Below, one piece after another: positions 4,870 to 64,000 of a DNA stretch of 64,000 bases (its first letter is position 1; each line of letters begins with the position of its first letter). The translations under genes were made by a program, and so were the position numbers. The DNA lies in the NCBI GenBank assembly GCA_037951105.1, contig JBAMJV010009728.1:20727-84726 (forward strand), read 5' to 3'. The notes below the pieces were generated by a model. It did no database searches. It saw only the letters and a program-made list of their open reading frames with translations, and had not been told where the DNA came from. This stretch comes from Echinarachnius parma. Its lineage: Eukaryota; Echinodermata; Echinoidea; Clypeasteroida; Echinarachniidae.

Positions 4870-5052
4870 CTAACGTTAACTGTCAAGTGATTGACAGACG
4901 ATGTCAATAGCTTTTCGGTGCCTTTCTTGTCCTAATGATGGTTGAGCCTTCTTTGTTTTTGTCCTGAAACATTTTCTGACAAATTGTTCTATGGAAAGGA
5001 AGATACTCAACTGATGATGAGTTCAATCTTGATATCAACATTCCATTTTCAG

Positions 5053-5945
5053 AAAATGCTGATCGTCCGCTGGGTGCCCCACATGCTTCAGGTAGGAAGA
5101 CAACTGCCTCTACTAATCTAGGAGGAGCAAGTTCTAGCCAGGTCCCTCCTGAAGTCTTTCCAGGTACAAGTAGCTTGAACATTCAGACAGGAAAACACAC
5201 AGATGAATGTCCTGATGATCATCAGAATGTAAGGGGTATTACAAGTCCCCAACACCATGATGGACGATGCGTATGCAACATGGATTCAAAGACTTTCTCT
5301 GACAAATGTGATCCCAAGACACATGAAAATGAACACACTTGTGTGAAATTGGTTTGCAAGTTTTGTTCAAAGGAATTCTCTCGCAAAGATAAACTATCAT
5401 TACACATGAAAAAACATTCTGGTGAACGACCTTTCACCTGCAAGGTATGTTCAATGGCCTTCACTAGAAAATGTCATCTAGCAGTACACATGCGAACACA
5501 TACTGGTAAACAACCTTTTACTTGCAAAGTATGTTCAAAGGCTTTCTCACAGAAAGGCGTTCTAACAAGACACATGAGGACACATACTGGTGATCGACCT
5601 TTCTCTTGCAAGGTATGTTCAAAGGCTTGCTCACAGAAAGGTGATCTAATGAGACACATGAGGACACATACTGGTGAACAACCTTTCACTTGCAAGGTAT
5701 GTTCAAAGACTTTCACTAAAAAATGTAATCTAGCATCACACATGCGGACACATACTGGTGATCGACCTTTCATTTGCAAAGTATGTTCAAAGGCTTGCTT
5801 ACAGAAAGGTGATCTAACAAGACACATGAGGACACATACTGGTGAACGGCCTTACACTTGCAAGGTATGTTCAAAGGCTTTCACTCAAAAAGGTAATCTT
5901 GCATCACACATAAGGACACATACTGGTCATCAACCTTTCACTTGA
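5053..5945 (+). CDS. unit 1 finger cassette 1: terminal exon with 7 C2H2 zinc fingers
   Basis: The acceptor CCATTTTCAG precedes AAAATGCTGATC; phase-1 entry gives E-N-A-D-R-P and an open frame through a linker (GKHTDECPDD and CNMDSKTFSDKC) into fingers. Seven C2H2 fingers follow at a 28-residue period with HTG[EDK][RQ]PF linkers. Helix segments include RKDKLSLH, RKCHLAVH, QKGVLTRH, QKGDLMRH, KKCNLASH, QKGDLTRH and QKGNLASH. The frame ends where a first-cysteine codon TGC reads TGA (5943-5945). Fingers of this type bind DNA in known families; the target is unknown. The near-identical copy at 58453 shares the stop, so it is not a sequencing slip in one copy. No ATG opens the exon, which supports its being a spliced 3' exon. 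Confidence 0.8.
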
Positions 5946-6605
5946 AAGGTATGTGCAAAGGCTTTCTTTCATAAAGGTGATTTAACAAGACACATGAGGA
6001 CACACACTTGTGAACGACCATTCAATTGCAAGGTATATTCAAAGACTTGCTCACAGAAAGGTGATCTAAAAAGACAAATGGGGAGACATACTGGTGAACA
6101 AACTTTCAATTGCAAAATATGTGCAAAGGCTTTCACTCAAAAATGTCATCTAGTATTACACATGAGAACACATACTGGTGAAAGACATTTTACATGCAAT
6201 GTATGTGCAAAGGCTTTCACTAAAAATTGTAATCTAGCATCACACATAAGGACACATACTGGTGATCGACCATTTAATTGCAAGGTATGTTCAAAGGCTT
6301 TTTCACAGAATCCTCACCTTACAAGTCACATGAGGACACATACTGGTGAACAGCCTTTCACTTGCAAGGTATGGTCAAAGACATTCACTCAAAAATGTCA
6401 TCTAGCATTACACATGAGAACACATACTGGTGAACAACCTTTCACTTGCAAGGTATGTTCAAAGGCTTTCACTCAAACAAGTCATCTAGCATTACACATG
6501 AGAACACATACTGGTGAACGACCTTTCACATGCAAGTTTTGTTCAAAAGCTTTCTCAAGGAAACCTCCCCTTACACAACATATGAGGACACACACTGTTG
6601 TATGA
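5946..6605 (+). pseudogene. eight further fingers in the same frame beyond the TGA
   Basis: After the TGA at 5943-5945 the same frame stays open for 219 codons, encoding eight more finger units at the 28-residue period. Several are damaged. The first has lost its Cys to the stop; the second has CKVYSK and a Gln for the first His; the sixth has CKVWSK here but CKVCSK in the copy at 59394. Others (KCHLVLH, NCNLASH, NPHLTSH, TSHLALH) look intact. It ends at CGA-to-TGA at 6603-6605. It could be translated only by readthrough or from a separate start. Confidence 0.7.
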
Positions 6606-7290
6606 CCTTCTATTAACAAGGTATGTTCTGTTATAAAGGTGATCAAACAAAACACATGAGGACACATACTGGTGATAAACTTTTCTCATGCAAAGTATGT
6701 TCAAAGGCTTTCTATCATAAAGGTGATCTAACAAAAAACATGAGCACACTGCTGAACAGCCTTTCACTTGAAAGGTATGTTCGAATGCTTTCTCACAGAA
6801 ATGTACACTAGTAAAGCTCATGAGGAGACACACTGGTGTTTGAAGCTTTCTCAAGGAAACCTCACCTTACAAAACACATGAGGACACATACTGGTGAATG
6901 ACCTTCTATTTACAAGGCATGTTCAAACTTCAGGCTTTCTGTTATAAAGGTGATCAAACAAAACACATGAGGACACATACTGGTGAGCAACCTTTCACTT
7001 GCAAGGTATGTTCAAAGGCTTTTTTCTGAGGGATGATCTAACAAGACACATGAGGACACACACTGGTGATAAACTTTTCACATGCAAAGTATGTTCAAAG
7101 GCTTTCTATCATTAAGGTGATCTAAAAAAAAATATGAGCACACTGCTGAACAGCCTTTCACTTGAAAGGTATGTTTGAATGCTTTCTCACAGAAATGTAC
7201 ACTAGTAAAGCTCATGAGGAGACACAATGGTGTTTGCCCTTTCAATTGCAACGTATGTTTAGAGGCTTTCTCTGTAAAAAGTGCTTAAGT
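6606..7290 (+). pseudogene. decayed zinc-finger array
   Basis: Finger-derived sequence (HTGE linkers, CKVCSK codons) continues with frameshifts and stops. A block of roughly 310-390 bases occurs twice: GTTATAAAGGTGATC at about 6631 and 6943, and GCACACTGCTGAACAGCC at about 6744 and 7138. Both copies share the same lesions, so the array was duplicated after it had decayed. Confidence 0.75.
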
Positions 7291-8140
7291 GCATAGTGCA
7301 CATGATGGCACCTATTGATGAATGCTCTATTACAACAACAACTGCGTGAAAGGTAACGCGTGCATTGCCCATTACAGTTCTGTAGCATATGCAGAGAAAC
7401 TTTATTCTTGCAGGATGGCCCATGGTCCTAATACCAAAAAGAAATGGGCTAGTAAATATTCATATATTACTACCCAATAAATGTGCAATTTTTGTACTAA
7501 CCACTAATTTTTTACGTGATCAAATTGAATTTTCTCCTTTTCTACCATTTTTGTTTTGTCACCTAGACCCTGGCTATGTACGACTGGAAGTGAAATTGTC
7601 ACTCGTGTGTATTCAATCGCTGTGATTTTTTGATGAAGACAATAATAAAAAGACATGACACACACGCACAATTATCCTTCTTCATGCTTATTTAATGATC
7701 TTACAATGAAACAAAGGGGAATGAAAAATAAAAAGTATTGCCTAGTACCCTGAAACTATCAATGGTTATTGTATTAATTTTTCTTTTGTTTTTCCTTATT
7801 TTTTTGGGCCAGTAGATTTTGGTTTCGGGCCACCAAATTTGGAAAAATACTAATTTTACTGGCCCGACCGGGCCACCAGCAAAAAAAAGTTAATTTCGAG
7901 CACTGCATTATAGATACAGAACCACACAAAACATTGTCCAAAGTTCATGGGGAAATATTTATCAATGATCATGGTAATATGTCATGATGACATTCCTTGC
8001 CTTGTTCATTTGTATCTGTTGATGAACCATTTTCTAACAAATTGTTCTATGGGAAGGAAGATACTCAACTGATGATGAATTCAATCTTAATATCAACAGT
8101 CCATTTCCATAAATTGTGGATCATCCGACGGGTGCCGCAG
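7291..8140 (+). other. spacer between cassettes 1 and 2, with a hAT-like fragment
   Basis: It contains a conserved 3'-flank segment (ttattcttgcaggatggccca) seen after other arrays. The stretch 7454-7948 differs from the counterpart 60893-61632. A repeat at about 7800-7905 is GGCC-rich and ends, on the minus strand, in CAGTGCTCGAAATTA, a hAT-like terminus; a related copy starts near 61262 in opposite orientation. From about 7925 the sequence is the intron upstream of cassette 2. No gene is seen. Confidence 0.5.
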
Positions 8141-9366
8141 ATGCTTCCTGTGGAAAGACAATTGCCTCTACTAATCTAGGAGAAGCAAGTTCTAGCCAGG
8201 TTCCTCCTGAAGTCTTTCCAGGTACAAGCAGCTTGAACATTCAGACAGGAAAACACACGGATGAATGTCCCGATGATCATCAGGATGCAAGGGGTATTAC
8301 AAGTCCCCAAGAATGTGATGGACCATGCATATGCAACATGGATTCAAAGACTTTCTCTGACAAATGTGATGCAAAGACACAGGCCAATGAAAACACTTGT
8401 GTTAAACTTGTTTGCAAGTTACGTTCAAAGGAATTATCAGACAAAGGTAGACTATCATTACATATGAGGACACATACTGGTGAACAACCTTTCACTTGCC
8501 ATGTATGTGCAAAGGCTTTCAATCAGGAAAGTCATTTTTCAAAACACATGCTGATGCATGCTAGTACACGTTTTTTCACTTGCAAGGTATGTTCAAAGGC
8601 TTTCACTGCAAAATGTTATCTAGCATTACACATGAGGACACATACTGATAAACAACCTTTTACTCGCAAGGTATGTACAAAGGCTTTCGCGCAGAAATCT
8701 CATCTAACAAGAAACATGAGGACACATACTGGTGATCAACCTTTCTCTTGCAAGGTATGTTCAAAGACTTGCTCACAGAAAGGTGATCTAATGAGACACT
8801 TGAGGACACATACTGGTGAAAGACCTTTTACTTGCAAGGTATGTTCAAAGACTTTCTCAGTGAAAGTTAATCTAACAAGACATATGAGGAAACATACTGG
8901 TGAACAACCTTTCACATGCAAGGTATGTTCAAAGCCTTTCTCACATAAAGGTGACATAACGAGACACATGAGAACACATACTGGTGAACAACCGTTCACT
9001 TGCAGGGAATGTTTAAAGGCTTTCTCACAAAAAGGTGATCTAACAAGACACATGAGGACACATACAGGTGAAAAACCTTTCACATGCAAGGTATGTTCAA
9101 AGGCTTTCACTCAAAAATGTCATCTGGCATTACACATGGGAACACATACTGGTGAACGACCTTTCACATGCAAGGTATGTTCAAAGGCTTTCTCACATCA
9201 AGGTGACCAAACGAGACACATGAGAACACATAATGGTGATCAACCTTTTACATGCAAGCTATGTTCAAAGGCTTTCTCACAGAAAGCTAATCTTACGAGA
9301 CACATAAGGAGATGTAACATCCATAAATCCAGACCCTATAATCATAGTCCCCTGATTATCATCTAG
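8141..9366 (+). CDS. unit 1 finger cassette 2: 11 C2H2 fingers, usual acceptor lost
   Basis: The exon resembles the other cassettes (DASCGKTIAS, SSSQVPPEVFPGTSSLNI, GKHTDECPDD), but the acceptor TTTTCAGAAAATG has become TTTCCATAAATTG. A downstream AG (GTGCCGCAG at 8132-8140) would enter the frame in the same phase 1; I start there. About eleven fingers follow. Three are degenerate: finger 1 has CKLRSK, finger 4 has TRKVC with Asn for His, and finger 11 ends HIRRC. The coding end is fused to foreign sequence from about 9310, giving about 19 non-finger residues before TAG. The copy at 61827 encodes the same protein, so the frame is preserved or recently copied. It is either a functional alternative exon or a very young pseudogene. 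Confidence 0.62.
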
Positions 9367-9503
9367 CCATTTCACTTCCTCCTCTTTAATCGACCACTTG
9401 TAACCAAACACTCTCATCACCAACCGACCTCTCGTTCCCACACATTCCTTGCCTAATTTACCATGCTGACCAACTATACTATTACTGTTATGCAATACCA
9501 TAT
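9310..9503. other. unidentified insert joining cassette 2 to the Penelope element
   Basis: The last finger is interrupted after GACACATAAGGAGATGTAAC, and 194 bases unrelated to fingers follow up to the Penelope-like repeat at 9504. On the minus strand it is open (WSIKEEEVKWLDDNQGTMII), but I recognise no domain. The same join is present at 62996-63189. Confidence 0.4.
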
Positions 9504-9705
9504 GTTCATAGAAACAAAAACTAAATCTGATCAACTGGACTTACTATTTTGGGAGTAGTACAGTTTCACAACCTATCCAGGTTGCTTCTTCAGCTAAACT
9601 GGCTTGGGAAGAGAAGATTACTGGTGAAAGCTGTTGGAATCACTGAAGTACGTAATCTTCTATTGTTCAAGATTGTTTAGGCGTCGAGGAATCTGGCGGA
9701 TTATC
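9504..9705 (-). repeat. Penelope LTR-like repeat, downstream copy
   Basis: 202 bp beginning GTTCATAGAAACAAAAAC and ending GGCGGATTATC. It pairs with 12140-12341 at an offset of 2636 and overlaps the last codons of the endonuclease frame. Confidence 0.9.
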
Positions 9706-15094: not shown

Positions 15095-15575
15095 TAGTTA
15101 AATTGTTCTAATTATAATATGCTAATTAGAGCTAATTAATTATGCGAAAATTGCATTTCTTATGTATTTCTTTGTTTTTTCGACTCATGTTTTTATTGTT
15201 TTTTTCAATGGAAATAATTATGGACCATTATTCAACCATTTTTAGCCCCAAATTAAATGATTGCAGTGATTAGAATGAAAAATAATGAAGATTTTGTCTT
15301 TTCTAAGAAAAAAACAATTTCCATAGGATTTGTACACAAATCACAAAATTTAGCGATTTTCAGGCGACGCTCACTTACAAAAGGTCACGTGACTTTAGAA
15401 CCGTATACCCGGTCGTCGCAAATTTGGTCTCAAAAGTTGCGCAAGACTTCAATGAAAAAACTCATAAAGTCCCGCGGCAATACCTGCGCGCGTTGCGGAA
15501 TTATCGCGAAAATAGAGGAGGGGGGGGCTAAATCAGCCCCCCCCCCAGTCTTTTTAGGGTTAAAGGGGAAGGAAC

Positions 15576-15659
15576 TAGAGCTGAGTCAAATCGAATGGCT
15601 ATTCGATATCCGATCGTGAAAGTCGGATACCGAATACAAATTTTCGGATACGAATATCC

Positions 15660-15691
<32 letters not shown>

Positions 15692-16091
15692 CATTCGAGA
15701 GATTCGATCAGAAAATGGCACATTGAACCCTGCTTTATCTTTTGCTAAAGTTAAAAGTTAAGGTATTTTACATAAATTACAAATAAACAAAACAAATAAT
15801 AAACCAAAGGTAAGAGGATTAATATACAAGTGGTATAGTGAGTGCCAAATTTAGAAGGATTATTTATCAAAGTATTTCATCTTGACAGCAGTTTGTACAC
15901 TAACATCACACTGTACTGCCGATTCTAATTGAAAAAACGGACAGAATATTTATTTAAAAATTAAAAATAAAAAAATTAAAATAAATTAAAATAAATTTTT
16001 TTTTTTTTTTTTTTTTTCGGATATTCGATATCCGACCGTTTTTACACGACTCATATTCGAAATGCAAAATATCCGGTTTGACTCAGCTCTA
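15576..16091. mobile_element. hAT-like MITE nested in the foldback element
   Basis: 516 bp, ends TAGAGCTGAGTCAAA and TTTGACTCAGCTCTA, flanked by the perfect 8-bp duplication GAAGGAAC (15568-15575 and 16092-16099). An 8-bp duplication is typical of hAT. The relative at 40234 has GAAGGAAC uninterrupted. It has poly-A and poly-T runs and no transposase. Confidence 0.9.
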
Positions 16092-16382
16092 GAAGGAACC
16101 CCTAGCCTTTCGACTCACCGGATGCGACGAGAGCACAACCCCTGTCATCTCCAGTCACCCACCTCCTCATGAACACTCCCAATAATGAAAACAATCGATA
16201 TTCTACGGCCCACCGTCGTCCGCCTCCAATGCCAACAGGAGGCGGCCACCCCTTCAACCTCCCGCGGCGAAACGACGTGTCAGGCGGAGAACACAATAGC
16301 GGGTTACAATAATGCTATTGTGTTCTCCGCCCGCCACGCCACTTCACCGCGAGCAGCCGAAGAAATGGCTGCCCCCTATGGG
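16092..16382. repeat. foldback element, T-to-C hypermutated copy
   Basis: Its first bases lie at about 15564-15575, split off by the hAT-like insertion. It contains two inverted arms of 68 bp (16232-16300 and 16314-16381) around GGGTTACAATAAT. It aligns over about 283 bases with 40246-40528. I count 39 sites with C here and T there, one T/C the other way, and six others. The arms show which base is older: left-arm C residues face A in the right arm, where the other copy has T facing A. Confidence 0.85.
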
Positions 16383-17598
16383 CACTGAAAGCAGACGACT
16401 CAATAAAATACCACTCACTTATCCTCCCAACGATCGTTGTATCAGCATCACTTATTCATGTCTCCCGACAAATAGCAAATATTACAGGAGACAAACTGAA
16501 GAACCATGTTTCACCTAAAATGTATGTCCAAAGGCTTTCTCGCAGAAAGGTACACTAGCAATGCACTTGAGGACATATACTGGTAAACAGCCTTTCACTT
16601 GCAAGGTATGTTCGAAGGCTTTTTGACAGAAAGGTACACTAGTAAAGCAAATGATGACACCTATTCATGAATGAACTTCTTACAACAACCACTACATGAA
16701 AGGTCACAAAAGGCTACATGTGTTCAAATATTATAGCTTGCATTGCATATTTCAGTTCTATAGCATATGCAAGGCCAATTTCACACACTTGCAGGATGGC
16801 CCGTGGCCCATTGAACAAAACAGAAATGTTTTGTTTTGTTGCTAGTAATGGGCTAGTAAAACTTGTTGCTAGTAATGGGCTAGTAAAACTTGAGAAAAGT
16901 TAAAATTTAGTTGCCAGATCATGCGAATTGCTCTTTTTAAGCTAAAAATTCTGAATGGTTGTATATTGAATTTTTTCATGCCAAACTTCAATAATAATTA
17001 GCTGTTATCAATAGAATTGACCAAGATCTTGAAGAGCAGACAATACTTTTTAAAAATTCAACCAAATTATGAGGCCATTTAATTTCTGGTCATCTAAATT
17101 AAGCTAAAAATAGTTATACTTTCCTGACTGGGCCATTATACTAGCATTAAGGTTAAAGTGGAGCCTTGTTTATTAAATGATATATTTTGGACATGTTTTT
17201 GGGAAAATAATACAGAAACAGTAAATAAAATAAAGCATCTCACAGCACTACTTCCAAAGTGATTGGAGTTTTAGGTAGATCTTTGTCCTGCCCAAAACAT
17301 CTCCAGGGCAATATGAATTGTCAATCAGGCTGGTAATAACAACAATATAGTTTGTATGAGCTACATGTAATACAGGTTCCATCATTAAAAAAAACAGAAC
17401 CACATACAACATTGTCCAAAATTCATGGTGAAATATTTCTCGATGATCATGGAAATCTGACATGACAATATTACTTGCCTTGTTTGTTTGTTTTTGGTAA
17501 CTTTTTGTCATGAAACATTTTCCGACAATTTGTTCTATGGAAAGGAAGAGACTCAACTGATGATGAATTTGATCTTAATATCAACATTCCATTTTCAG
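16383..17598 (+). pseudogene. decayed finger tail, 3'-flank and upstream intron of cassette 3
   Basis: 16510-16660 holds two decayed finger units (AAGGCTTTCTCGCAGAAAGG, and GGCTTTTTGACAGAAAGG with a stop). Then come the common 3'-flank (about 16665-16900, including a doubled AGTAATGGGCTAGTAAAACT) and the conserved intron upstream of a cassette (17390-17598, ending CCATTTTCAG). No intact gene. Confidence 0.6.
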
Positions 17599-19358
17599 AA
17601 AATGATGATCGTCTGATGGGTGCCCCAGATGCTTCCTGTGGGAAGACAATTGCCTCTACTAATCCAGGAGAAGCAAGTTCTAGACAGGTTCCTCCTGAAG
17701 TCTTTCCAGGTACAAGTAGCTTGAACATTCAGACAGGAAAACACACAGATGAATGTCCTTGTGATCATCAGGATGTAAGGGGTATTACAAGTCCCCAAAA
17801 ATGTGATGGACCATGCAAATGCAACGTGGATTTAAAGACTTTCACTGACGAATGTGATGCAAAGACACATGACAATGAAAACACTTGTGTTAAACTTGTT
17901 TGCAAGTTACGTTCAAAGGAATTATCAGACAAAGGTAGACTATCATTACATATGAGGACACATACTGGTGAACGACCTTTCACTTGCCGGGTATGTGCAA
18001 AAGCTTTCAATCAGGAAAGTAATTTTTCAAAACACATGCTAATGCATGCTAGTACACGTTCTTTCACTTGCAAGGTATGTTCAAAGGCTTTCACTGCAAA
18101 ATGTAATCTAGCATTACACATGAGAACACATACTGATAAACAACATTTTACTCGCAAGGTAGGCCTATGTACAAAGGCTTTCGCTCAGAAATCTCATCTA
18201 ACAAGAAACATGAGGACACATACTGGTGATCAACCTTTCACTTGCAAGGTATGTTCAAAGGTTTTCTCACAGAATCCTCACCTTACAAGACATATGAGGA
18301 CACATACTGGTGAACAACCTATTACATGCAAGGTATGTTCAAAGGCTTTTTCACAGAAAGGTTATCTAAAGAGACACTTGAGGACACATACTGGTGAACG
18401 ACATTATACTTGCAGTGTATGTTCAAAGGCTTTCTCTCTGAAAAGTGATCTGACGAGACACATGAGGACACATACTGGTGATCGACCTTTCACTTGCAAG
18501 GTATGTTCAAAGGATTTCCAACTGAAAGGCGCTCTAACAAGACACATGAGGACACATACTGGTGAACAACCTTTCACTTGCAAGGTATGTTCTAAGGCTT
18601 TCTCACAGAAATGTGATCTAACGAGACACATGAGGACACATACTGGTGAAAAACATTTCACTTGCAAGGTATGTTCAAAGGCTTTCTCACAGAAAAGCAA
18701 TTTAACAAGACACATGATGACACATACTGGTGATCAACCTTTCACATGCAAGGTATGTTCAAAGGCTTTCTCACATAAAGGTGATCTAACAAGACACATG
18801 AGGACACATACTGGTGAAAAACCTTTCACTTGCAAGGTATGTGCAAAGGCTTTCACCAGAAAATGTATTCTTGCATCACACATAAGGACTCATACTGGTG
18901 AACAACCTTTTACATGCAAGGTGTGTTCAAAGGCTTTCTCACAGAAAGGTGATCTAACAAGACACATGTGGACACATACTGGTGGAAAACATTTCACTTG
19001 CAAGGTATGTTCAAAGGCTTTCTCACAGAAAAGCGGTCTAACAAGACACATGTGGACACATTCTGGTGAACGACCTTTCACCTGCAAGGTATGTTCAATG
19101 GCCTTCACTAGAAAATGTCATCTAGCAGTACACATGCGAACTCATACTGGTGAACAACCTTTTACATGCAAGGTGTGTTCAAAGGCTTTCTCACAGAAAG
19201 GTGATCTAACAAGACACATGTGGACACATACTGGTGAAAAACCTTTCACTTGCAAGGTATGTGCAAAGGCTTTCACTAAAAAATGTAATCTAGCATCACA
19301 CATAAGGACTCATACTGGTGAACAACCTTTTACATGCAAGGTGAATACTGGTGAATGA
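17599..19358 (+). CDS. unit 1 finger cassette 3: terminal exon with about 17 C2H2 fingers
   Basis: The acceptor CCATTTTCAG is intact; phase-1 entry reads E-N-D-D-R-L-M-G-A-P-D-A-S and stays open to the stop. An ATG lies at 17616, but an upstream constant region is more likely to supply the start. The linker (GKHTDECPCD, CNVDLKTFTDEC) leads to a degenerate first finger and about 16 more at a 28-residue period. Helices include [64 protein letters not shown] and QKSGLTRH. One unit has a two-residue insertion (RKVGLCTK). The array ends in FTCKVNTGE-stop, a finger cut after its first cysteine. It is the longest array here. Confidence 0.82.
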
Positions 19359-20325: not shown

Positions 20326-21124
20326 CCCTAAAAAGACTGGGCTATTTTGAACCTTAAAAAAACTGGGGGGGGGGGGGGGGGGGGGGGCGGGGCTAAAAGG
20401 ACCCCCCCCCCCCTAAGATCTCGGCAGCCGAAACTCCAATCGACTCCAAATTTGGCATCGTGATAGATGTCCATAAGGTCTATAATATTGCGTAGTTTTA
20501 AAAAAAAATTAATTAGAATATGCTAATTAGAGCTAATTAATTATGCAAAAATGGTATTTTTCTGTATTTTTTGTAGTTTTCTCGGCAATCAAAACTCCAA
20601 TCGACTCCAAATTTGGCATGGTGATAGATGTCCATGAGCCATACAATATTGCATAGTTAAATTTTTTTGTTTTAATTATAATATGCTAATTAGAGCTAAT
20701 TAATTATGCGAAAATTGCATTTTTTTCGTATTTTTTGCATTTTAAAAATATTTGTTATATATTTTTTCGATGGAATAAAATATTAACCATTATTCAACCA
20801 TTTGTAGCCCAAAATTAAATAATTGCAGTGATCAGAATGAAAAATAATGAAGATTTTGTCTATTCTAGGAAAAAGTCAATTTCCATAGGATTTGTACACA
20901 AATCACAAAATTTAGCGATTTTCGGGCCGACGCTCACTTACAAAAGGTCACGTAACTTTAGAACGGTACACCCGGTTGTCGCAAATTTGGTATCAAAAGT
21001 TGCGCAAGACTCAAAGGAAAAAAGTCGTGAAGTGGCACCGTAAAATATTTAAGCGTTGCGAAGTAATCGCGAAAATAGAGGAGGGGGGCTAAATCAGCCC
21101 CCCCCCCCCCCAGTCTTTTTAGGG
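20326..21124. mobile_element. piggyBac-like TTAA MITE, copy 2
   Basis: TTAA/CCCTAAAAAGACTGGG at 20322-20341 and CCAGTCTTTTTAGGG/TTAA at 21110-21128. 799 bp, without the TA insertion of copy 1. It sits in a decayed finger. The poly-G and poly-C runs next to the ends are complementary. Confidence 0.9.
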
Positions 21125-21263
21125 TTAAGCTGTCCAAGACACCTGCATGGTCCTGACAACATCCCAATCCTAAAATCTTCCAAAGTCTGCGCCCCCTGGA
21201 CCCCCATTATTCCCTTATTCATGATTTCTCGATATGCCCACTAAAATTGAGCTAACTATATAT

Positions 21264-38236: not shown

Positions 38237-38914
38237 GTACATGTACATGTAGCTCAGGGTTTCAATAAAGAATAAACACTGATGATCTTAAAGGATTCAT
38301 GAAGTGCAAAAACAAGTTGACTTCAGTTTATCTGTATTAGGGTACATGTATAATTCATGTTTGTAAAAAGTTTGACCTAACTATGTTTTGTATATTTTTA
38401 ATAAGTTAAGCTCCTATTTTCTTTTGCTAAGCCCCACCTCTTAAAAAAACTCTCCTGAGTGAAATTCTTCTTGTGACATAATCAGTCAATCACTACCCAG
38501 ATACTGATAAGATTAACAATGCCCCTTCGCCCAAGCTGAGCGCCTGCTCACAATAGCATCACATACTTGAATACTACCAACTTACACACTTTCAATTTCA
38601 AAAGCAATTGCTATGTCAGAAAAGCTCAGCCATCATTAGGACAAGAAAGGCACTGATAAACTATTGTATGTAAGCATGCATGGTATGCTATTGTGGGCAT
38701 GTTCTGTTTTTCCTTTTGTCTTTTGTTCATCTAACGTTAACTGTCAAGTGATTGACAGATGATGTCAATAGCTTTTCGGTGCCTTTCTTGTCCTAATTGA
38801 TGGTTGAACCTTATTTGTTTTTGTCATGAAACCTTTTCTGACAAATTGTTTTATCGAAAGGAAGAGACTCAACTGATGATGAATTCAATCTCAATATCAA
38901 CATTCCATTTTCAG

Positions 38915-39780
38915 AAAATGCTGATCGTCCGATGGGTGCCCCAGATGCTTCCTGTGGGAAGACAATTGCCTCTACTAATCCAGGAGAAGCAAGTTCTAGC
39001 CAGGTTCCTCCTGAGGTCTTTCCAGGTACAAGTAGCTTGAACATTCAGACAGGAAAACACACAGATGAATGTCTTGATGACACTTGTGTTAAACTTGTTT
39101 GCAAGTTATGTTCAAAGGAATTATCAGACAAAGGTAGACTATCATTACACATGAAGAAACATTCTGGTGAACGACATTTCACTTGCAAGGTATGTTTTAA
39201 GGCTTTCTCACAGAAAGTTAGTCTAACAAGACACATGAGGACACATACTGGTGAACGACCTTATACTTGCAGTGTATGTTCAAAGGCTTTCTATCTGAAA
39301 GGTGATCTGACGAGACACATGAGGACACATACTGGTGATCGACCTTTCTCTTGCAACGTATGTTCAAAGGCTTGCTCAGAGAAATCTCATCTTACAAGAC
39401 ACATGAGGACACATAGAGGTGAACGACCTTTCACTTGCAAGGTATGTTCAAAGGCTTTCAGTCGAAAATGTCATCTAGCATTACACATGAGGACACATAC
39501 AGGTGAAAAACCTTTCACTTATACTTGCAGTGTATGTTCAAAGGCTTTCTCACAGAAAGGTGATCTAACAAAACACATGAGGACACATACAGGTGAAAAA
39601 CCTTTCACTTGCAAGCTATGTTCAAAGGCTTTCTCACAGAAAGGTGATCTAACAAGACACATGAGGACACATACTGGTGATAAACCTTTTACATGCAATC
39701 TATGTTCAAAGGCTTGCTCATTGAAAGCTAATCTTACGAGACACATGAGGAGACATACTGGAGAACATTGTTTCACCTAA
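38915..39780 (+). CDS. unit 2 finger cassette 1: eight C2H2 fingers
   Basis: Acceptor CCATTTTCAG, phase-1 entry E-N-A-D-R-P-M-G-A-P-D-A-S. The linker is shorter than in other cassettes: about 38 codons between TDECLDD and TCVKLVCK are missing. Eight fingers follow (helices DKGRLSLH, QKVSLTRH, LKGDLTRH, EKSHLTRH, RKCHLALH, QKGDLTKH, QKGDLTRH, LKANLTRH). One linker has a two-residue insertion (FTYTCSVC). The frame closes with TAA at the first-cysteine position of the next finger, the same site as the TGA in cassette 1 of units 1 and 3. It is the best-preserved constant-plus-cassette arrangement, with all upstream exons present. Confidence 0.82.
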
Positions 39781-40233
39781 AAGGTATGTTTTCAGGCTTT
39801 CTTGCAGAAAGGGAAACTAGCAACGCACACGAGGACACATACTGGTAAACAGCCATTCACTTGCAAGGTATGTTCAAAGGCTTTCTCGCAGAAAGATACA
39901 CTAGCAATGCACTTGAGGACACAGTGGTAAACAGCCTTTCACTTGCAAGGTATGTTCGAAGGCTTTTTGACAGAAAGGTACACTAGTAAAGCTAATGATG
40001 ACACCTATTCATGAATGCGCTGATTACAACTATCACTGCATGAAAGGTCACAAAAGGCTACATGTGTATATAGCTTGCATTGCCTATTTCAGTTCTATAG
40101 CATATGCAGGGCCAATTTCACACACTTGCAGGATGGCCCATGGCCCATTAAAAAAACATAAATCGGCTAGTAAAACTAAATAAAAGTAAAAATTTAGTTG
40201 CCAGATCATGCAAATTGTTCTTTCTTTTTTTTT
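39781..40233 (+). pseudogene. decayed fingers and common 3' flank
   Basis: Three decayed finger units to about 39990 (GGCTTTCTTGCAGAAAGG, GCTTTCTCGCAGAAAG, GGCTTTTTGACAGAAAGG), then the shared 3' flank (ATGACACCTATTCATGAATG, TTGCAGGATGGCCCATGG). Confidence 0.65.
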
Positions 40234-40528
40234 AAGGGGAAGGAACTCCTAGCCTTTTGACTTACTGGATGTGATGAGAGCATAACTCCTGTCATTTCTA
40301 GTCACTTATTTCCTCATGAATATTCCCAATAATGAAAATAATCAATATTTGATGGACCATTGTCGTCTGCTTTCAATGCCCACAGGAGGCGGCCATTTCT
40401 TCAATTTCTCGCGGTGAAATGATGTGTCAGGCGGAGAACACAATAGCGGGTTACGATAATGCTATTGTGTTCTCCGCCTGCCACGTCATTTCACCGCGAG
40501 AAGTTGAAGAAATGGCCGCCTCCTATGG
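40234..40528. repeat. foldback element, unmutated reference copy
   Basis: Inverted arms 40380-40447 and 40461-40528 (68 bp, about four mismatches) around GGGTTACGATAAT. It begins AAGGGGAAGGAACTCC. It inserted into finger-array sequence: coding resumes at TTACACATGAGG immediately after. See the copy at 16092. Confidence 0.85.
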
Positions 40529-41601
40529 CATTACACATGAGGACACATACTGGGGAACGACTGTTCACCTGCAAGGTATGTTCAATGGCTTTCACTAAAA
40601 AATGTCATCCAGCATCACACATGGGAACACATACTAGTGAACAACCTTTTACATGCAATGTATGTTCAAAGGCTTTTTCACAGAACGGCGTTCTAACAAG
40701 ACACATGAGGGCACATACAGGTGAAAAACTTTTCACATGCAAGGTATGTTCAAAGGCTTTCACTCAAAAATGTCATCTAGCATTACACATGGGAACACAT
40801 ACTGGTGAGCAACCTTTCTCTTGCAAGGTATGTTCGAAGACTTTCTCTCTGAAAGTTAATCTAACAAGACAAATGAGGACACATACAGGTGAAAAACCTT
40901 TCACATGCAAGGTATGTTCAAAGACTTTCACTCAAAAATGTAATCTAGCATCACACATGAGGACACATACTGGTGAACAACCTTTCACTTGCAAGATATG
41001 TTCAAAGACTTTCACTCAAAAATATCAACTAGCATTTCACATGGCAACACATACTGGTAAACAACCTTTTACTTGCAAGGTATGTTCAAAGGCTTTCTCA
41101 CAGAAAGTTTATTTAACAAGACACATGAGGACACATACAGGTGAAAAACCTTTCACATGCAAGGTATGTTCAAAGGCTTTCTCACAGAAAGGTGTTCTAA
41201 CAAGGCACATGAGGACACATACTGGTGAAAAACCTTTCACTTGCAAAATATGTTCAAAGGCTTTCACTCAAAATTGTAATCTAGCATTACACATGGGAAC
41301 ACATACTAGTGAGCAACCTTTCTCTTGCAAGGTATGTTCGAAGACTTTCTCTCTGAAAGTTTATCTAACAAGACACATGAGGACACATACAGGTGAAAAA
41401 CCTTTCACATGCAAGGTATGTTCAAAGGCTTTCTCACAGAAAGGTGTTCTAACAAGGCACATGAGGACACATACTGGTGAAAAACCTTTCACTTGCAAGG
41501 TATGTGCAAAGGCTTTCACCAGAAAATGTAATCTTGCATCACACATAAGGACTCATACTGGTGAACAACCTTTTACATGCAAGGTGAATACTGGTGAATG
41601 A
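40459..41601 (+). CDS. orphan 12-finger array opening inside the foldback element
   Basis: The array has no cassette linker or acceptor upstream. The open frame starts at an ATG in the foldback loop/right arm (MLLCSPPATSFHREKLKK) and runs into finger 1 at about residue 25. About twelve fingers follow (helices [96 protein letters not shown]). One has Gln for the first zinc His. The array ends FTCKVNTGE-stop exactly as cassette 3 of unit 1, so it is the 3' part of the equivalent cassette. It is either a truncated relic or a chimeric gene using a transposon-supplied start. Confidence 0.6.
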   Translation: MLLCSPPATSFHREKLKKWPPPMALHMRTHTGERLFTCKVCSMAFTKKCHPASHMGTHTSEQPFTCNVCSKAFSQNGVLTRHMRAHTGEKLFTCKVCSKAFTQKCHLALHMGTHTGEQPFSCKVCSKTFSLKVNLTRQMRTHTGEKPFTCKVCSKTFTQKCNLASHMRTHTGEQPFTCKICSKTFTQKYQLAFHMATHTGKQPFTCKVCSKAFSQKVYLTRHMRTHTGEKPFTCKVCSKAFSQKGVLTRHMRTHTGEKPFTCKICSKAFTQNCNLALHMGTHTSEQPFSCKVCSKTFSLKVYLTRHMRTHTGEKPFTCKVCSKAFSQKGVLTRHMRTHTGEKPFTCKVCAKAFTRKCNLASHIRTHTGEQPFTCKVNTGE

Positions 41602-42569: not shown

Positions 42570-43199
42570 CCCTAAAAAGACTGGGCTATTTGCCTATTTT
42601 GAACCTTTAAAAAAATGGTGGGGGGGGGGGCGCTAAAAGGAACCCCCCCTAAGATCTCGGCAACCGAAACTCCAATCGACTCCAAATTTGGCATGGTGAT
42701 AGATGTCCATGAGCCATACAATATTGCATAGTTAAATTTTTTGTTTTAATTATAATATGCTAATTAGAGCTAATTAATTATGCGAAAATTGCATTTTTTT
42801 CGTATTTTTTGCATTTTAAAAATATTTGTTATATATTTTTTCGATGGAATAAAATATTAACCATTATTCAACCATTTGTAGCCCAAAATTAAATAATTGC
42901 AGTGATCAGAATGAAAAATAATGAAGATTTTGTCTATTCTAGGAAAATGTCAATTTCCATAGGATTTGTACACAAATCACAAAATTTAGCGATTTTCGGG
43001 CCGATGCTCACTTACAAAAGGTCACGTAACTTTAGAATGGTACACCTGATTGTCGCAAATTTGGTATCAAAAGTTGCCCAAGACTCAATGGAAAAAAGTC
43101 GTGAATTGGCACCGTAAAATATTTAAGCGTTGCGAAGTACTGTAATCGCGAAAATAGAGGAGGGGGGGGCTAAATCAGCCCCCCCCAGTCTTTTTAGGG
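42570..43199. mobile_element. piggyBac-like TTAA MITE, copy 3
   Basis: CCCTAAAAAGACTGGG after TTGA (mutated TTAA) and CCAGTCTTTTTAGGG before TTAA. Orthologous to 20326-21124 with internal deletions. Confidence 0.88.
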
Positions 43200-43338
43200 T
43201 TAAGCTGTCCAAGACACCTGCATGGTCCTGACAACATCCCAATCCTAAAATCTTCCAAAGTCTGCGCCCCCTGGACCCCCATTATTCCCTTATTCATGAT
43301 TTCTCGATATGCCCACTAAAATTGAGCTAACTATATAT

Positions 43339-57891: not shown

Positions 57892-58452
57892 GTACATGTA
57901 GCTCAGAGTTTCAATCAAGAATAAACACTGATGATCTTAAAGGATTCATGAAGTGCAAATACAAGTTGACTTCAGTTAATCTGTATTAGGGTACATGTAT
58001 ATTTAATGTTTGTAAAAAGTTCGACCTAACTATGTTTTGTATATAAAACCCCACCTCTTAACAAAGTCTCCTGAGTGAAAATCTGCTCACAATATCATCA
58101 CATGTTTGAATACTACCAACTAACACACTTTCAATTTCAAAAGCAATTGCTATGTCAGAAAAGCTCAGCCATCATTAGGACAAGAAAGGCACTGATAAAC
58201 TATTGTATGTGAGCATGCACGGCATGCTATTGTGGGCACGTTCTGTTTGTCCTTTTGTCTTTTGTTCATCTAACGTTAACTGTCAAGTGATTGACAGACG
58301 ATGTCAATAGCTTTTCGGTGCCTTTCTTGTCCTAATGATGGTTGAGCCTTCTTTGTTTTTGTCCTGAAACATTTTCTGACAAATTGTTCTATGGAAAGGA
58401 AGATACTCAACTGATGATGAGTTCAATCTTGATATCAACATTCCATTTTCAG

Positions 58453-59345
58453 AAAATGCTGATCGTCTGCTGGGTGCCCCATATGCTTCAGGTAGGAAGA
58501 CAACTGCCTCTACTAATCTAGGAGGAGCAAGTTCTAGCCAGGTCCCTCCTGAAGTCTTTCCAGGTACAAGTAGCTTGAACATTCAGACAGGAAAACACAC
58601 GGATGAATGTCCTGATGATCATCAGAATGTAAGGGGTATTACAAGTCCCCAACACCATGATGGACGATGCGTATGCAACATGGATTCAAAGACTTTCTCT
58701 GACAAATGTGATCCCAAGACACATGAAAATGAACACACTTGTGTGAAATTGGTTTGCAAGTTTTGTTCAAAGGAATTCTCTCGCAAAGATAAACTATCAT
58801 TACACATGAAAAAACATTCTGGTGAACGACCTTTCACCTGCAAGGTATGTTCAATGGCCTTCACTAGAAAATGTCATCTAGCAGTACACATGCGAACACA
58901 TACTGGTAAACAACCTTTTACTTGCAAAGTATGTTCAAAGGCTTTCTCACAGAAAGGCGTTCTAACCAGACACATGAGGACACATACTGGTGATCGACCT
59001 TTCACTTGCAAGGTATGTTCAAAGGCTTGCTCACAGAAAGGTGATCTAATGAGACACATGAGGACACATACTGGTGAACAACCTTTCACTTGCAAGGTAT
59101 GTTCAAAGACTTTCACTAAAAAATGTAATCTAGCATCACACATGCGGACACATACTGGTGATCGACCTTTCATTTGCAAAGTATGTTCAAAGGCTTGCTT
59201 ACAGAAAGGTGATCTAACAAGACACATGAGGACACATACTGGTGAACGGCCTTACACTTGCAAGGTATGTTCAAAGGCTTTCACTCAAAAAGGTAATCTT
59301 GCATCACACATAAGGACACATACTGGTCATCGACCTTTCACTTGA
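58453..59345 (+). CDS. unit 3 finger cassette 1: seven C2H2 fingers
   Basis: Near-identical to 5053-5945: acceptor CCATTTTCAG, phase 1, same linker, same seven fingers, same terminal TGA at a cysteine codon. Differences are a few substitutions (for example FTCK for FSCK in finger 4 and HRPFT for HQPFT at the end). Confidence 0.8.
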
Positions 59346-60690
59346 AAGGTATGTGCAAAGGCTTTCTTTCATAAAGGTGATTTAACAAGACACATGAGGA
59401 CACACACTTGTGAACAACCATTCAATTGCAAGGTATATTCAAAGACTTGCTCACAGAAAGGTGATCTAAAAAGACAAATGGGGAGACATACTGGTGAACA
59501 AACTTTCAATTGCAAAATATGTGCAAAGGCTTTCACTCAAAAATGTCATCTATTATTACACATGAGAACACATACTGTTGAAAGACATTTTACATGCAAT
59601 GTATGTGCAAAGGCTTTCACTAAAAATTGTAATCTAGCATCACACATAAGGACACATACTGGTGATCGACCATTTAATTGCAAGGTATGTTCAAAGGCTT
59701 TTTCACAGAATCCTCACCTTACAAGTCACATGAGGACACATACTGGTGAACAGCCTTTCACTTGCAAGGTATGTTCAAAGACATTCACTCAAAAATGTCA
59801 TCTAGCATTACACATGAGAACAAATACTGGTGAACAACCTTTCACTTGCAAGGTATGTTCAAAGGCTTTCACTCAAACAAGTCATCTAGCATTACACATG
59901 AGAACACATACTGGTGAACGACCTTTCACATGCAAGTTTTGTTCAAAAGCTTTCTCAAGGAAACCTCCCCTTACAAAACATGTGAGGACACACACTGTTG
60001 TATGACCTTCTATTTACAAGGTATGTTCTGTTATAAAGGTGATCAAACAAAACACATGAGGACACATACTGGTGATAAACTTTTCACATGCAAAGTATGT
60101 TCAAAGGCTTTCTATCATAAAGGTGATCTAACAAAAAACATGAGCACACTGCTGAACAGCCTTTCACTTGAAAGGTATGTTCGAATGCTTTCTCACAGAA
60201 ATGTACACTAGTAAAGCTCATGAGGAGACACACTGGTGTTTGAAGCTTTCTCAAGGAAACTTCACCTTACAAAACACATGAGGACACATACTGGTGAATG
60301 ACCTTCTATTTACAAGGTATGTTCAAACTTCAGGCTTTCTGTTATAAAGGTGATCAAACAAAACACATGAGGACACATACTGGTGAGCAACCTTTCACTT
60401 GCAAGGTATGTTCAAAGGCTTTTTTCTGAGGGATGATCTAACAAGACACATGAGGACACACACTGGTGATAAACTTTTCACATGCAAAGTATGTTCAAAG
60501 GCTTTCTATCATTAAGGTGATCTAAAAAAAAATATGAGCACACTGCTGAACAGCCTTTCACTTGAAAGGTATGTTCGAATGCTTTCTCACAGAAATGTAC
60601 ACTAGTAAAGCTCATGAGGAGACACTGGTGTTTGCCCTTTCAATTGCAACTTATGTTTTATAGAGGCTTTCTCTGTTAAAAGTGCTTATG
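59346..60690 (+). pseudogene. in-frame fingers after the TGA, then decayed array
   Basis: 59346-60005 is eight further finger units in the same frame. Finger 6 is intact here, but one linker reads HTVERH and one finger ends MRTN in place of MRTH. 60006-60690 is the decayed, doubled block as at 6606-7290. Confidence 0.7.
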
Positions 60691-61826
60691 TGCATAGTGC
60701 ACATGATGGCACCTATTGATGAATGCTCTATTACAACAACAACTGCGTGAAAGGTAACAAGTAGCTTCATGTGTTTAAATATATAGCGTGCATTGCCCAT
60801 TACAGTTCTGTAGCATATGCAGAGAAACTTTATTCTTGCAGGATGGCCCATGGTCCTAATACCCAAAAGAAATGGGCTAGTAAAACTGAAGAAAAGTAAC
60901 ATTTCAGTTGTTAGATTTATGCGAATTGTTCCTTTTAAGCTGACGATTCTGAATGGTAGTATATTGCATTTTTTCTGCCAAGCTTCATTCATAATTGTTA
61001 TCAATGAATGAACCAAGATTTTGAAGAGAAGACAGTAATTATGTATTAATTTATATCTATTGGACATGTTCATTGGAAATCATACAGAAACTGTGAATAA
61101 AATACTGCATCTAATATCACTTCTTTCAAGATGATTGGAGTTTTAGGTAAGAGCATTACCCTGCCTAGAAACAAAACATCTCCAGAACAGTGAGAATTGT
61201 CAATCGGGCTGTTAATCATAGCCATACAGGTTTTTAAAGCTAATACAGGTTCCATTATACAACCCTCGAAATTAGCATAGGCCCGATGGCCCGGGGCCAC
61301 TAAAAATTGACGCCGGGCCAGTAAAAAATAATATTTGGTGGCCCGACTGGGCCAGCAAAAAAAAAAAAAAAATTTGCAGATACCCAGTAGTCATGTTTAG
61401 TCCTGTCTAGGGCATGTCAAGAGCTTGCTTTTAAATGTAGCATTCAGCAAGTTATACCCTTTCCTCACATACAAAATATTGGTTAGTTAAAAAGTTGCAA
61501 GTTAACTGAGCAAGTAATACTGCTGCCAATGAATATTCATACATTCTTGAGCAGCCGTACTCATATTCTAACCAGTTGTTATAAACAAAAATTTCATATT
61601 AAAACTCGTTATTAGTAATTTTAGTTATTTGCGTGGGGAAATATTTATCAATGATCATGGTAATATGTCATGATGACATTCCTTGCCTTGTTCATTTGTA
61701 TCTGTTGATGAACCATTTTCTAACAAATTGTTCTATGGGAAGGAAGATACTCAACTGATGATGAATTCAATCTTAATATCAACAGTCCATTTCCATAAAT
61801 TGTGGATCATCCGACGGGTGCCGCAG
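60691..61826 (+). other. spacer and upstream intron of cassette 2
   Basis: The common 3' flank (about 60780-61260) resembles 16740-17340. At 61262 the hAT-like terminus CAACCCTCGAAATTAG begins a GGCC-rich repeat. 61384-61600 resembles 12410-12790. From about 61633 it matches the first copy again. No gene. Confidence 0.45.
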
Positions 61827-63052
61827 ATGCTTCCTGTGGAAAGACAATTGCCTCTACTAATCTAGGAGAAGCAAGTTCTAGCCAGGTTCCTCCTGAAGTC
61901 TTTCCAGGTACAAGCAGCTTGAACATTCAGACAGGAAAACACACGGATGAATGTCCCGATGATCATCAGGATGCAAGGGGTATTACAAGTCCCCAAGAAT
62001 GTGATGGACCATGCATATGCAACATGGATTCAAAGACTTTCTCTGACAAATGTGATGCAAAGACACAGGCCAATGAAAACACTTGTGTTAAACTTGTTTG
62101 CAAGTTACGTTCAAAGGAATTATCAGACAAAGGTAGACTATCATTACATATGAGGACACATACTGGTGAACAACCTTTCACTTGCCATGTATGTGCAAAG
62201 GCTTTCAATCAGGAAAGTCATTTTTCAAAACACATGCTGATGCATGCTAGTACACGTTTTTTCACTTGCAAGGTATGTTCAAAGGCTTTCACTGCAAAAT
62301 GTTATCTAGCATTACACATGAGGACACATACTGATAAACAACCTTTTACTCGCAAGGTATGTACAAAGGCTTTCGCGCAGAAATCTCATCTAACAAGAAA
62401 CATGAGGACACATACTGGTGATCAACCTTTCTCTTGCAAGGTATGTTCAAAGACTTGCTCACAGAAAGGTGATCTAATGAGACACTTGAGGACACATACT
62501 GGTGAAAGACCTTTTACTTGCAAGGTATGTTCAAAGACTTTCTCAGTGAAAGTTAATCTAACAAGACATATGAGGAAACATACTGGTGAACAACCTTTCA
62601 CATGCAAGGTATGTTCAAAGCCTTTCTCACATAAAGGTGACATAACGAGACACATGAGAACACATACTGGTGAACAACCGTTCACTTGCAGGGAATGTTT
62701 AAAGGCTTTCTCACAAAAAGGTGATCTAACAAGACACATGAGGACACATACAGGTGAAAAACCTTTCACATGCAAGGTATGTTCAAAGGCTTTCACTCAA
62801 AAATGTCATCTGGCATTACACATGGGAACACATACTGGTGAACGACCTTTCACATGCAAGGTATGTTCAAAGGCTTTCTCACATCAAGGTGACCAAACGA
62901 GACACATGAGAACACATAATGGTGATCAACCTTTTACATGCAAGCTATGTTCAAAGGCTTTCTCACAGAAAGCTAATCTTACGAGACACATAAGGAGATG
63001 TAACATCCATAAATCCAGACCCTATAATCATAGTCCCCTGATTATCATCTAG
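61827..63052 (+). CDS. unit 3 finger cassette 2: 11 fingers, usual acceptor lost
   Basis: Encodes the same protein as 8141-9366, including the degenerate fingers and the foreign C-terminus. Has the same acceptor change and the same in-phase GCAG at 61823-61826. Confidence 0.62.
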
Positions 63053-63189
63053 CCATTTCACTTCCTCCTCTTTAATCGACCACTTGTAACCAAACACTCT
63101 CATCACCAACCGACCTCTCGTTCCCACACATTCCTTGCCTAATTTACCATGCTGACCAACTATACTATTACTGTTATGCAATACCATAT

Positions 63190-64000
63190 GTTCATAGAAA
63201 CAAAAACTAAATCTGATCAACTGGACTTACTATTTTGGGAGTAGTACAGTTTCACAACCTATCCAGGTTGCTTCTTCAGCTAAACTGGCTTGGGAAGAGA
63301 AGATTACTGGTGAAAGCTGTTGGAATCACTGAAGTACGTAATCTTCTATTGTTCAAGATTGTTTAGGCGTCGAGGAATCTGGCGGATTATCGGATTGTAT
63401 ACCAGAGATAAGTTGTGACGAAGTCCCCCTCCCCTGTTAAGCGAGGGGTTTTCAGCTGCGACGTAAATGGCCTCTCTGACCCCTCTCTCAAACCATCTTG
63501 GTTCCTTGTCTAGTATTAAAACATCTTTGTCATTGAATTCGTGTCCTGAGGTACTCAAGTGAGAGAAGACAGCAGATTCATTGCCTGCAGAACCGGAGCG
63601 ACGATGTTGGTAGAGTCGTTTGTGTAGAGGTTGTTTGGTTTCTCCTTGCAGTTTTCCCCTTGGCATTGGACTGCATACACTAAGTTGTTTTGTTTCTGTC
63701 TGGGAGTTTTGTCTTTGGGGTGAACAAGTCTTTGTTTAAGAGTGTTGGCCGGTTTGAAATAGACAGGAATGTTGTAGTTCCTAAAGATGCGCTGTATCTT
63801 CTCGGACAAGTCCTTAACGTAAGGAACAGACACACCAGATCTCTTGGTTGTGTTTCTTGGGTGTGCGCTGGTCGGCTGTGTCCTGCGGTCACGGGGGTGA
63901 AGGGCTTTTTCTATGCTCCAGTTTTTGTAGCCGCAACAGTGTAGGGCTTCCCTAAGGTGTCTGTGTTCCTTCTCCTTTGCTTCCTCTGATGAAGGGATGA
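63190..64000 (-). mobile_element. Penelope-like element, duplicated copy cut by the window end
   Basis: LTR-like repeat at 63190-63391, frameshifted endonuclease region at 63346-63666 and the C-terminal part of the RT frame from 63555, all at a constant offset of 53686 from the first copy. Confidence 0.9.

What the first reader, a model, noticed from the sequence alone, without database searches (positions are those of the whole stretch)
16092..16382. Foldback element hypermutated by T-to-C on one strand
Seen: against 40246-40528, 39 sites are C here and T there, one is the reverse, and only about six other differences exist. The hairpin gives polarity: in both arms of this copy, changed C residues face A, while the other copy has T facing A. 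So the change is T to C on + (A to G on -). Biased gene conversion would also give A to G on +, which is not seen. Known: ADAR enzymes edit A to I in long dsRNA, read as G after reverse transcription. Inference: a minus-strand hairpin RNA was edited and copied back, or an unknown strand-biased DNA process acted.
Basis: partly seen in the sequence, partly recalled or inferred. Interest (0 to 1): 0.75.

Follow-up and report, generated by a model that had tools for sequence, protein, structure and literature searches.

The report
RNA-editing-like hypermutation of foldback transposon
Two copies of a hairpin-forming transposon in an animal genome carry dense A-to-G changes on one DNA strand that look like RNA editing by ADAR enzymes, as if edited RNA had been written back into the genome.

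Summary
The element is a 447-bp, almost fully palindromic, TTAA-flanked MITE with hundreds of copies in this 1.2-Gb genome (508 matches to one pattern). The copy at 16092-16399 has 39 of 88 T changed to C but only 1 of 81 A changed to G; 49 ordinary copies have 43 of 6167 T>C, at most 3 each. A second, full-length copy on contig C9680, with TTAA at both ends, has 24 of 132. T is ancestral: ordinary copies have T, and C now faces A at 41 of 42 changed paired sites whose partner survives. Read on the minus strand as A>G, the changes follow ADAR neighbour rules (preset score p=0.00045; wrong-strand control p=0.53) and are absent from the hairpin centre (0 of 28, region chosen after seeing the data). 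The host has an ADAR2-like exon with intact catalytic motifs. Best reading: a minus-strand hairpin RNA was A-to-I edited and its sequence then entered DNA by RNA-templated repair or as cDNA. That last step is inferred. ADAR acting on DNA, or an error-prone polymerase, is not excluded.

The parts
15560..15575 (+). Left end of the hypermutated MITE: TTAA plus AGGGGAAGGAAC (positions 0-15 of 447)
   Evidence: Sequence identical to the family ends
15576..16091 (+). Nested hAT-like element inserted into the MITE; 8-bp duplication GAAGGAAC at 15568-15575 and 16092-16099. No T>C against six family copies (156 T)
   Evidence: the hAT label rests on the 8-bp duplication and end sequence and is recalled
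16092..16399 (+). Hypermutated body of the MITE (positions 8-315 of 447): 39 of 88 T read C
16268..16331 (+). Loop and loop-proximal stem; from MITE position 190 to 247 (about 16274-16331) none of the 14 T is changed, nor in the C9680 copy
16400..16486 (+). 3' part of an LTR joined to the truncated MITE; followed by GGAGA duplication (16487-16491)
   Evidence: Matches LTR copies at 88-94%; T>C 0 against four and 1-2 against the other four of eight copies compared
9313..9512 (+). 5' part of the same LTR, preceded by GGAGA (9308-9312); the segment 9513-16399 lies inside this LTR
15095..15563 (+). Unrelated TTAA-ending repeat directly left of the MITE; not hypermutated (5 differences from family majority, 1 of them T>C)
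40231..40528 (+). Ordinary, right-truncated copy of the same MITE (1 T>C, 3 C>T, 5 transversions against the family majority)

Best explanation
The element is a non-autonomous foldback DNA transposon (TTAA-type MITE). SHOWN: two copies carry dense, almost strand-exclusive A>G changes (minus strand); T/A is ancestral; the changes follow ADAR-type neighbour rules and are absent from the hairpin centre; the host has an ADAR2-like gene. INFERRED: a transcript of the minus strand folded into the roughly 215-bp hairpin, was A-to-I edited by ADAR, and the edited sequence became DNA, either because the RNA served as template in repairing a break in the palindrome or because a cDNA of it was put into the chromosome by the TTAA transposase or by recombination. 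The two copies represent at least two differently edited molecules.
For: Spectrum: 39/88 T>C with 1/81 A>G in the window copy, 24/132 with 2/130 in C9680, 43/6167 in 49 ordinary copies. Polarity: C opposite A at 19 of 19 and 22 of 23 changed paired sites with a surviving partner. Context on the minus strand: 5' G 8 seen, 15.4 expected, p=0.0055; 3' G 20 against 13.9, p=0.018; preset ADAR score p=0.00045, the same score on the plus strand p=0.53. Centre 190-247: 0 of 28, 8.8 expected. Minus strand folds as one hairpin, -345.8 kcal/mol. Neighbouring repeat, nested hAT-like element and LTR piece show no T>C excess. Host ADAR2-like exon with CHAE and PCG motifs, E=7.8e-90 to human ADAR2, Pfam A_deamin E=4.2e-59; it keeps the serine that PMC5625713 (passages) links to 3' G preference.
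Against: No RNA was seen and the write-back step is unobserved. The neighbour bias is clear in C9680 (5' G 1 of 31) but weak in the window copy (7 of 22). Unpaired T are changed less often but not significantly (5 seen, 8.6 expected, p=0.074). The centre was chosen after seeing the data; a longest-unchanged-run test gives p=0.0064 for the window copy but p=0.30 for C9680. The two copies share more sites than context predicts (14 against 9.7, p=0.011). Only two changed copies were found and both are changed on the same strand. The flanks of C9680 could not be tested for changes next to the element.
Confidence: 0.45

Rival explanations
1. Direct deamination of deoxyadenosine in the minus DNA strand, by ADAR on an RNA:DNA hybrid over the MITE or by an unknown DNA adenine deaminase. 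No reverse transcription is needed and TTAA ends stay intact.
For: Same spectrum and neighbour rules; C9680 keeps its TTAA ends. Editing of the DNA strand of hybrids is reported in vitro and discussed as possible in cells (PMC8448848 passages; PMC12925331 passages).
Against: A hybrid would have no reason to spare the hairpin centre (0 of 28). PMC12925331 says the DNA editing was seen at dA-C mismatches or with mutant enzymes.
Confidence: 0.22
2. An error-prone DNA polymerase that prefers G opposite template T (Pol iota type) copied the plus-strand hairpin, for example while repairing a stalled fork or broken palindrome.
For: Would give nearly pure T>C on one strand, confined to the palindrome (Pol iota preference is recalled; one paper search gave three listings that I did not read).
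Against: Does not predict the minus-strand neighbour rules (p=0.00045) that match ADAR, nor an unchanged centre.
Confidence: 0.14
3. The two copies descend from one changed element that transposed, later changed further; one founding event instead of two.
For: 14 of 17 C9680 changes in the shared span are also in the window copy; overlap exceeds the context expectation, p=0.011.
Against: 25 window-only and 3 C9680-only changes in that span are also T>C, so at least one more bout is needed; non-T>C differences are not shared. This rival concerns the number of events, not the chemistry.
Confidence: 0.25
4. C is ancestral: the window copy and C9680 belong to an old C-rich subfamily, and the common family arose by C>T change.
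For: Only the pairwise count, which has no direction by itself.
Against: C faces A at 41 of 42 changed paired sites with a surviving partner, so the C form breaks the hairpin; the 49 ordinary copies carry T apart from 43 scattered changes in 6167; no C-rich relative appeared among the 40 scored candidates.
Confidence: 0.02
5. Sequencing or assembly artefact, for example systematic miscalls at a palindrome.
For: No reads were available; palindromes are difficult for some platforms (recalled).
Against: 48 other loci with the same palindrome and the 40-kb copy are clean; the changes follow a biochemical neighbour rule and differ between the two copies.
Confidence: 0.05

Closest known systems
A-to-G hypermutated inverted-repeat region of Rous-associated and avian leukosis retroviruses
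   Same: Nearly half of the adenines in an inverted repeat became G and were ascribed to ADAR (PMC12925331, passages)
   Different: There the genome is RNA that is reverse-transcribed anyway; here the element is a DNA transposon, and the route into DNA is unexplained
Hoppel/Hok inverted repeat of Drosophila and the palindromic Harbinger repeat of the frog, hyper-edited in RNA
   Same: DNA-transposon hairpin transcripts edited by ADAR (PMC5974252, PMC5502491 and PMC5625713, passages)
   Different: There the passages describe editing of RNA; here the changes are in the chromosomal sequence
APOBEC DNA editing of retrotransposons
   Same: Strand-biased single-type clusters in genomic repeats (PMC2873906, passages)
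   Different: That is G>A; here it is A>G on one strand, of adenine-deaminase type, and the element is not a retrotransposon
RNA-templated double-strand break repair
   Same: A known route from transcript sequence to chromosome in human cells (PMC12065846, abstract and outline)
   Different: Not shown here; proposed as one possible write-back step

Membership tests
ADAR A-to-I hyper-editing | Dense A>G on one strand with few other changes | tested here: met
   39/88 and 24/132 on the minus strand against 1/81 and 2/130 on the plus strand
ADAR A-to-I hyper-editing | Long, nearly perfect double-stranded substrate | tested here: met
   One hairpin over 447 bases, minus strand -345.8 kcal/mol
ADAR A-to-I hyper-editing | G depleted 5' of the edited A | tested here: met
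   8 seen, 15.4 expected, p=0.0055 for both copies together; per copy 1 of 31 and 7 of 22
ADAR A-to-I hyper-editing | 3' G preferred where the enzyme has S486 | tested here: met
   20 against 13.9, p=0.018; host exon has S two residues before the E488 position, read from the alignment; the numbering is from PMC5625713 passages and recall
ADAR A-to-I hyper-editing | Edits in paired, not unpaired, A | tested here: inconclusive
   5 unpaired seen, 8.6 expected, p=0.074
ADAR A-to-I hyper-editing | Enzyme encoded by the host | tested here: met
   PF02137 matches on six contigs; catalytic motifs read in the C773 exon
ADAR A-to-I hyper-editing | Inosine in the RNA of the locus | not testable with these tools
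   No RNA data
TTAA-type (piggyBac-like) MITE | TTAA duplication and terminal inverted repeats | tested here: met
   TTAA at both ends in most of L003-L020 and in C9680
TTAA-type (piggyBac-like) MITE | Mobilised by a piggyBac-like transposase | not tested
   No transposase was sought
LINE-type retrocopy | Poly(A) tail and target duplication around a copied transcript | tested here: not met
   C9680 ends at TTAA on both sides with no tail; the T-run near the window copy belongs to the nested hAT-like element
APOBEC/AID editing or RIP | C>T or G>A clusters | tested here: not met
   1 G>A and 1 C>T in the window copy; 0 G>A and 1 C>T in C9680

The most novel reading that the evidence does not exclude
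ADAR edits of a hairpin RNA were written back into chromosomal DNA at a DNA transposon: a heritable RNA-to-DNA information flow outside any retroelement, through RNA-templated repair or capture of a cDNA by a cut-and-paste transposase.
Probability: 0.42. Interest if true: 0.88.

Novelty: new variant of a known kind. Interest (0 to 1): 0.7.

Why it matters
Whether edited RNA ever returns to the chromosome, and whether ADAR can deaminate DNA in living cells, are open questions (PMC12925331 and PMC8448848, passages). A foldback MITE with hundreds of near-identical copies is a natural recorder: each copy has a known starting sequence, direction and secondary structure, so edited copies can be recognised, and the write-back step can be tested by population sequencing and in ADAR mutants.

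Tried and rejected
Poly(T) at 15996-16017 as a retrocopy tail: rejected, it lies inside the nested hAT-like element, which has copies at up to 97% identity elsewhere. The MITE/LTR junction as a reverse-transcriptase template switch: dropped, because both parts of one LTR with the same GGAGA duplication lie 6.9 kb apart, so the junction is the edge of a later insertion with loss of some tens of bases of LTR. C9680 as part of a longer retrocopy: the first 718 bases of the one flank searched matched only themselves among 40 scored candidates; the other flank was not searched. Gene conversion from a C-rich relative: none appeared among 40 scored of 1315 candidates. Hypermutation as a general feature of repeats here: of 19,699 alignments within 326 kb, 390 passed the asymmetry filter and all 390 involve the window copy or the C9680 copy. 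This sample is small and was chosen around this MITE and its neighbours.

More changed copies were sought with patterns that force C at one or two T positions and allow C or T elsewhere. Searches gave only C9680 and the window copy; one search added C9714 and one search added C1179 and C11478, each with the forced C alone. The pattern fits the left arm only; the others fit both arms. Copies with other mismatches in the pattern, or changed only elsewhere, would be missed. The 49 ordinary copies are L003-L050 plus the 40-kb copy; L001 and L002 were set aside as the two tested copies, and L051 and L052 were left out as repeats of them. L003-L020 were the best matches to the window copy and L021-L050 the first pattern matches, so they are not a random sample.

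Full report
What was checked first. The pairwise count in the finding is exact: 39 C/T sites, one reverse, six other substitutions. The window lies in contig C9709 of a 1.2-Gb genome of 14,790 contigs. The feature is one copy of a repeated foldback element, so the polarity can be tested with other copies.

The element. The full-length copy used as reference is 447 bp with TTAA at both ends (TTAAAGGGGAAGGAAC...TTCCCCTTTAA) and a 13-base loop between the detected arms; the minus strand folds into a single hairpin of -345.8 kcal/mol. By its TTAA duplication and size I call it a TTAA-type (piggyBac-like) MITE; that label is recalled, and no transposase was sought. A 35-place pattern that allows C or T at the T positions matches 508 places, so the family is large.

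Polarity and uniqueness. Forty-nine ordinary copies carry 0-3 T>C each, 43 of 6167 T in all, beside 25 A>G, 36 G>A and 34 C>T. The window copy carries 39 of 88, with 1 of 81 A>G. A second copy, on C9680 (L002), carries 24 of 132, with 2 of 130 A>G; it is full length with TTAA on both sides. In C9680, 22 of 24 changed sites read C opposite A, 1 turned T:G into C:G, and 1 is unpaired; in the window copy 19 read C opposite A, 19 have lost their partner arm, and 1 is unpaired. T is therefore ancestral and the change is T>C on plus, A>G on minus. Pattern searches that force C at chosen sites found these two copies and three further places with the single forced change only.

Anatomy of the window locus. 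From left to right: an unrelated TTAA-ending repeat (15095-15563); the MITE's left end (15560-15575); a 516-bp hAT-like element nested in it with 8-bp duplication GAAGGAAC (15576-16091); the MITE body (16092-16399); the last 87 bp of an LTR (16400-16486); then C2H2 zinc-finger sequence, with an intact 580-aa zinc-finger reading frame at 17616-19358. The LTR's first part is at 9313-9512 and both parts are flanked by GGAGA, so a 6.9-kb segment, whose right edge cuts the MITE, sits inside an LTR. The neighbours show no T>C excess: 1 of 5 changes in the TTAA repeat; 0 among 156 T in the hAT-like element; none against four of the eight LTR copies compared and 1-2 against the other four. The zinc-finger flank differs from three paralogues in all directions (T>C 4, 12 and 9; A>G 4, 6 and 7; C>T 1, 9 and 9; unpolarised). 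The hAT-like element and the LTR junction may be younger than the change, so they test confinement only in part. Nineteen of the 39 changed sites lie opposite the arm that is now missing; if a hairpin was the substrate, the change is older than the truncation.

Signature. Read on the minus strand, the changed A avoids a 5' G (8 seen, 15.4 expected, p=0.0055) and favours a 3' G (20 against 13.9, p=0.018). A preset score (5' A/U +1, 5' G -1, 3' G +1) gives p=0.00045, while the same score read on the plus strand gives p=0.53. The score was written after the per-neighbour table had been seen, but uses the published rules. Among 16 single-neighbour features, 5' G and 3' G gave the two lowest p values, uncorrected for the number of tests; 3' A was also low, depleted at p=0.036. 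The bias is strong in C9680 (5' G 1 of 31) and weak in the heavily changed window copy (7 of 22). The loop and loop-proximal stem, positions 190-247, hold no change in either copy (0 of 28, 8.8 expected, p=5e-5). That region was picked after seeing the data; a longest-run test gives p=0.0064 for the window copy and 0.30 for C9680. Unpaired T are changed less often, not significantly (p=0.074). Porath et al. (PMC5625713, passages) report 5' G depletion in both of their species clusters and tie 3' G preference to residue S486, with A preferred instead in their invertebrate and amphibian cluster. The host's ADAR2-like exon has CHAE, PCG and the serine two residues before the E488 position, and matches human ADAR2 at E=7.8e-90. 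A Pfam search found further ADAR-domain matches on C4302 (same scores as C773), C1490, C2568, C1690 and C8035.

One event or two. Within the shared span C9680 has 17 changes, of which 14 are also in the window copy; the window copy has 25 more. The overlap exceeds what 5' base and centre predict (14 against 9.7, p=0.011). Either strong site preferences or partial common descent can account for this. Because the non-shared changes are also nearly all T>C, at least two differently changed molecules are needed.

How it probably works. The most likely course is A-to-I editing of a minus-strand hairpin RNA, followed by copying into DNA. Editing signature: shown. Transcription and write-back: inferred. 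An ordinary LINE retrocopy does not fit C9680, which has TTAA ends and no tail. RNA-templated break repair has been reported in human cells (PMC12065846, abstract and outline), and long palindromes are break-prone (recalled). A cDNA taken up by the TTAA transposase is an alternative. Direct deamination of deoxyadenosine in an RNA:DNA hybrid would give the same spectrum and is discussed as possible (PMC8448848 and PMC12925331, passages), but does not explain the clean loop region. Pol iota-like error (recalled) does not explain the neighbour rules.

Known and new. ADAR-type hypermutation of an inverted repeat is known for avian retroviruses (PMC12925331, passages), and editing of DNA-transposon hairpin RNA is known in fly and frog (passages). 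In the searches made here (listings, and passages where stated) I did not see a report of such changes fixed in the chromosomal DNA of a DNA transposon. Many subscription papers are not in that library.

Limits. Two changed copies only, both changed on the same strand; no reads, no RNA, no named organism; the ordinary copies are not a random sample. The p values come from permutations of few sites. Of C9680's flanks only one was searched, and its first 718 bases had no other copy to compare with.

Noticed in passing
4956-9310, 17394-19342, 38818-41586, 58356-62996: Tandem C2H2 zinc-finger arrays, partly duplicated about 53.4-53.7 kb apart in the window; the frame at 17616-19358 matches zf-C2H2 with 14 stretches
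   Followed up: partly
9313-9512 and 16400-16486; also 62999-63192: One LTR split by a 6.9-kb segment, with GGAGA on both outer sides; the 5' part, ending at the same LTR position in the BLAST match, recurs in the duplicated block at 62999-63192
   Followed up: partly
15095-15563, also 20654-21128 and 42729-43203: A second TTAA-ending repeat family with 4414 first-look candidates in the genome; the MITE sits exactly at its TTAA end
   Followed up: partly
G000 contigs C773 and C4302; C2474 and C9709: Equal-scoring ADAR-domain matches on two contigs, and parts of the window matched with equal scores on C2474, suggest that both haplotypes may be in the assembly; no second copy of the hypermutated MITE locus appeared among the scored candidates
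   Followed up: no
16874-16936, 60870-60934 and 40161-40223: A short 63-base stretch next to the 40-kb MITE copy recurs at two other places in the window (82-89%)
   Followed up: no
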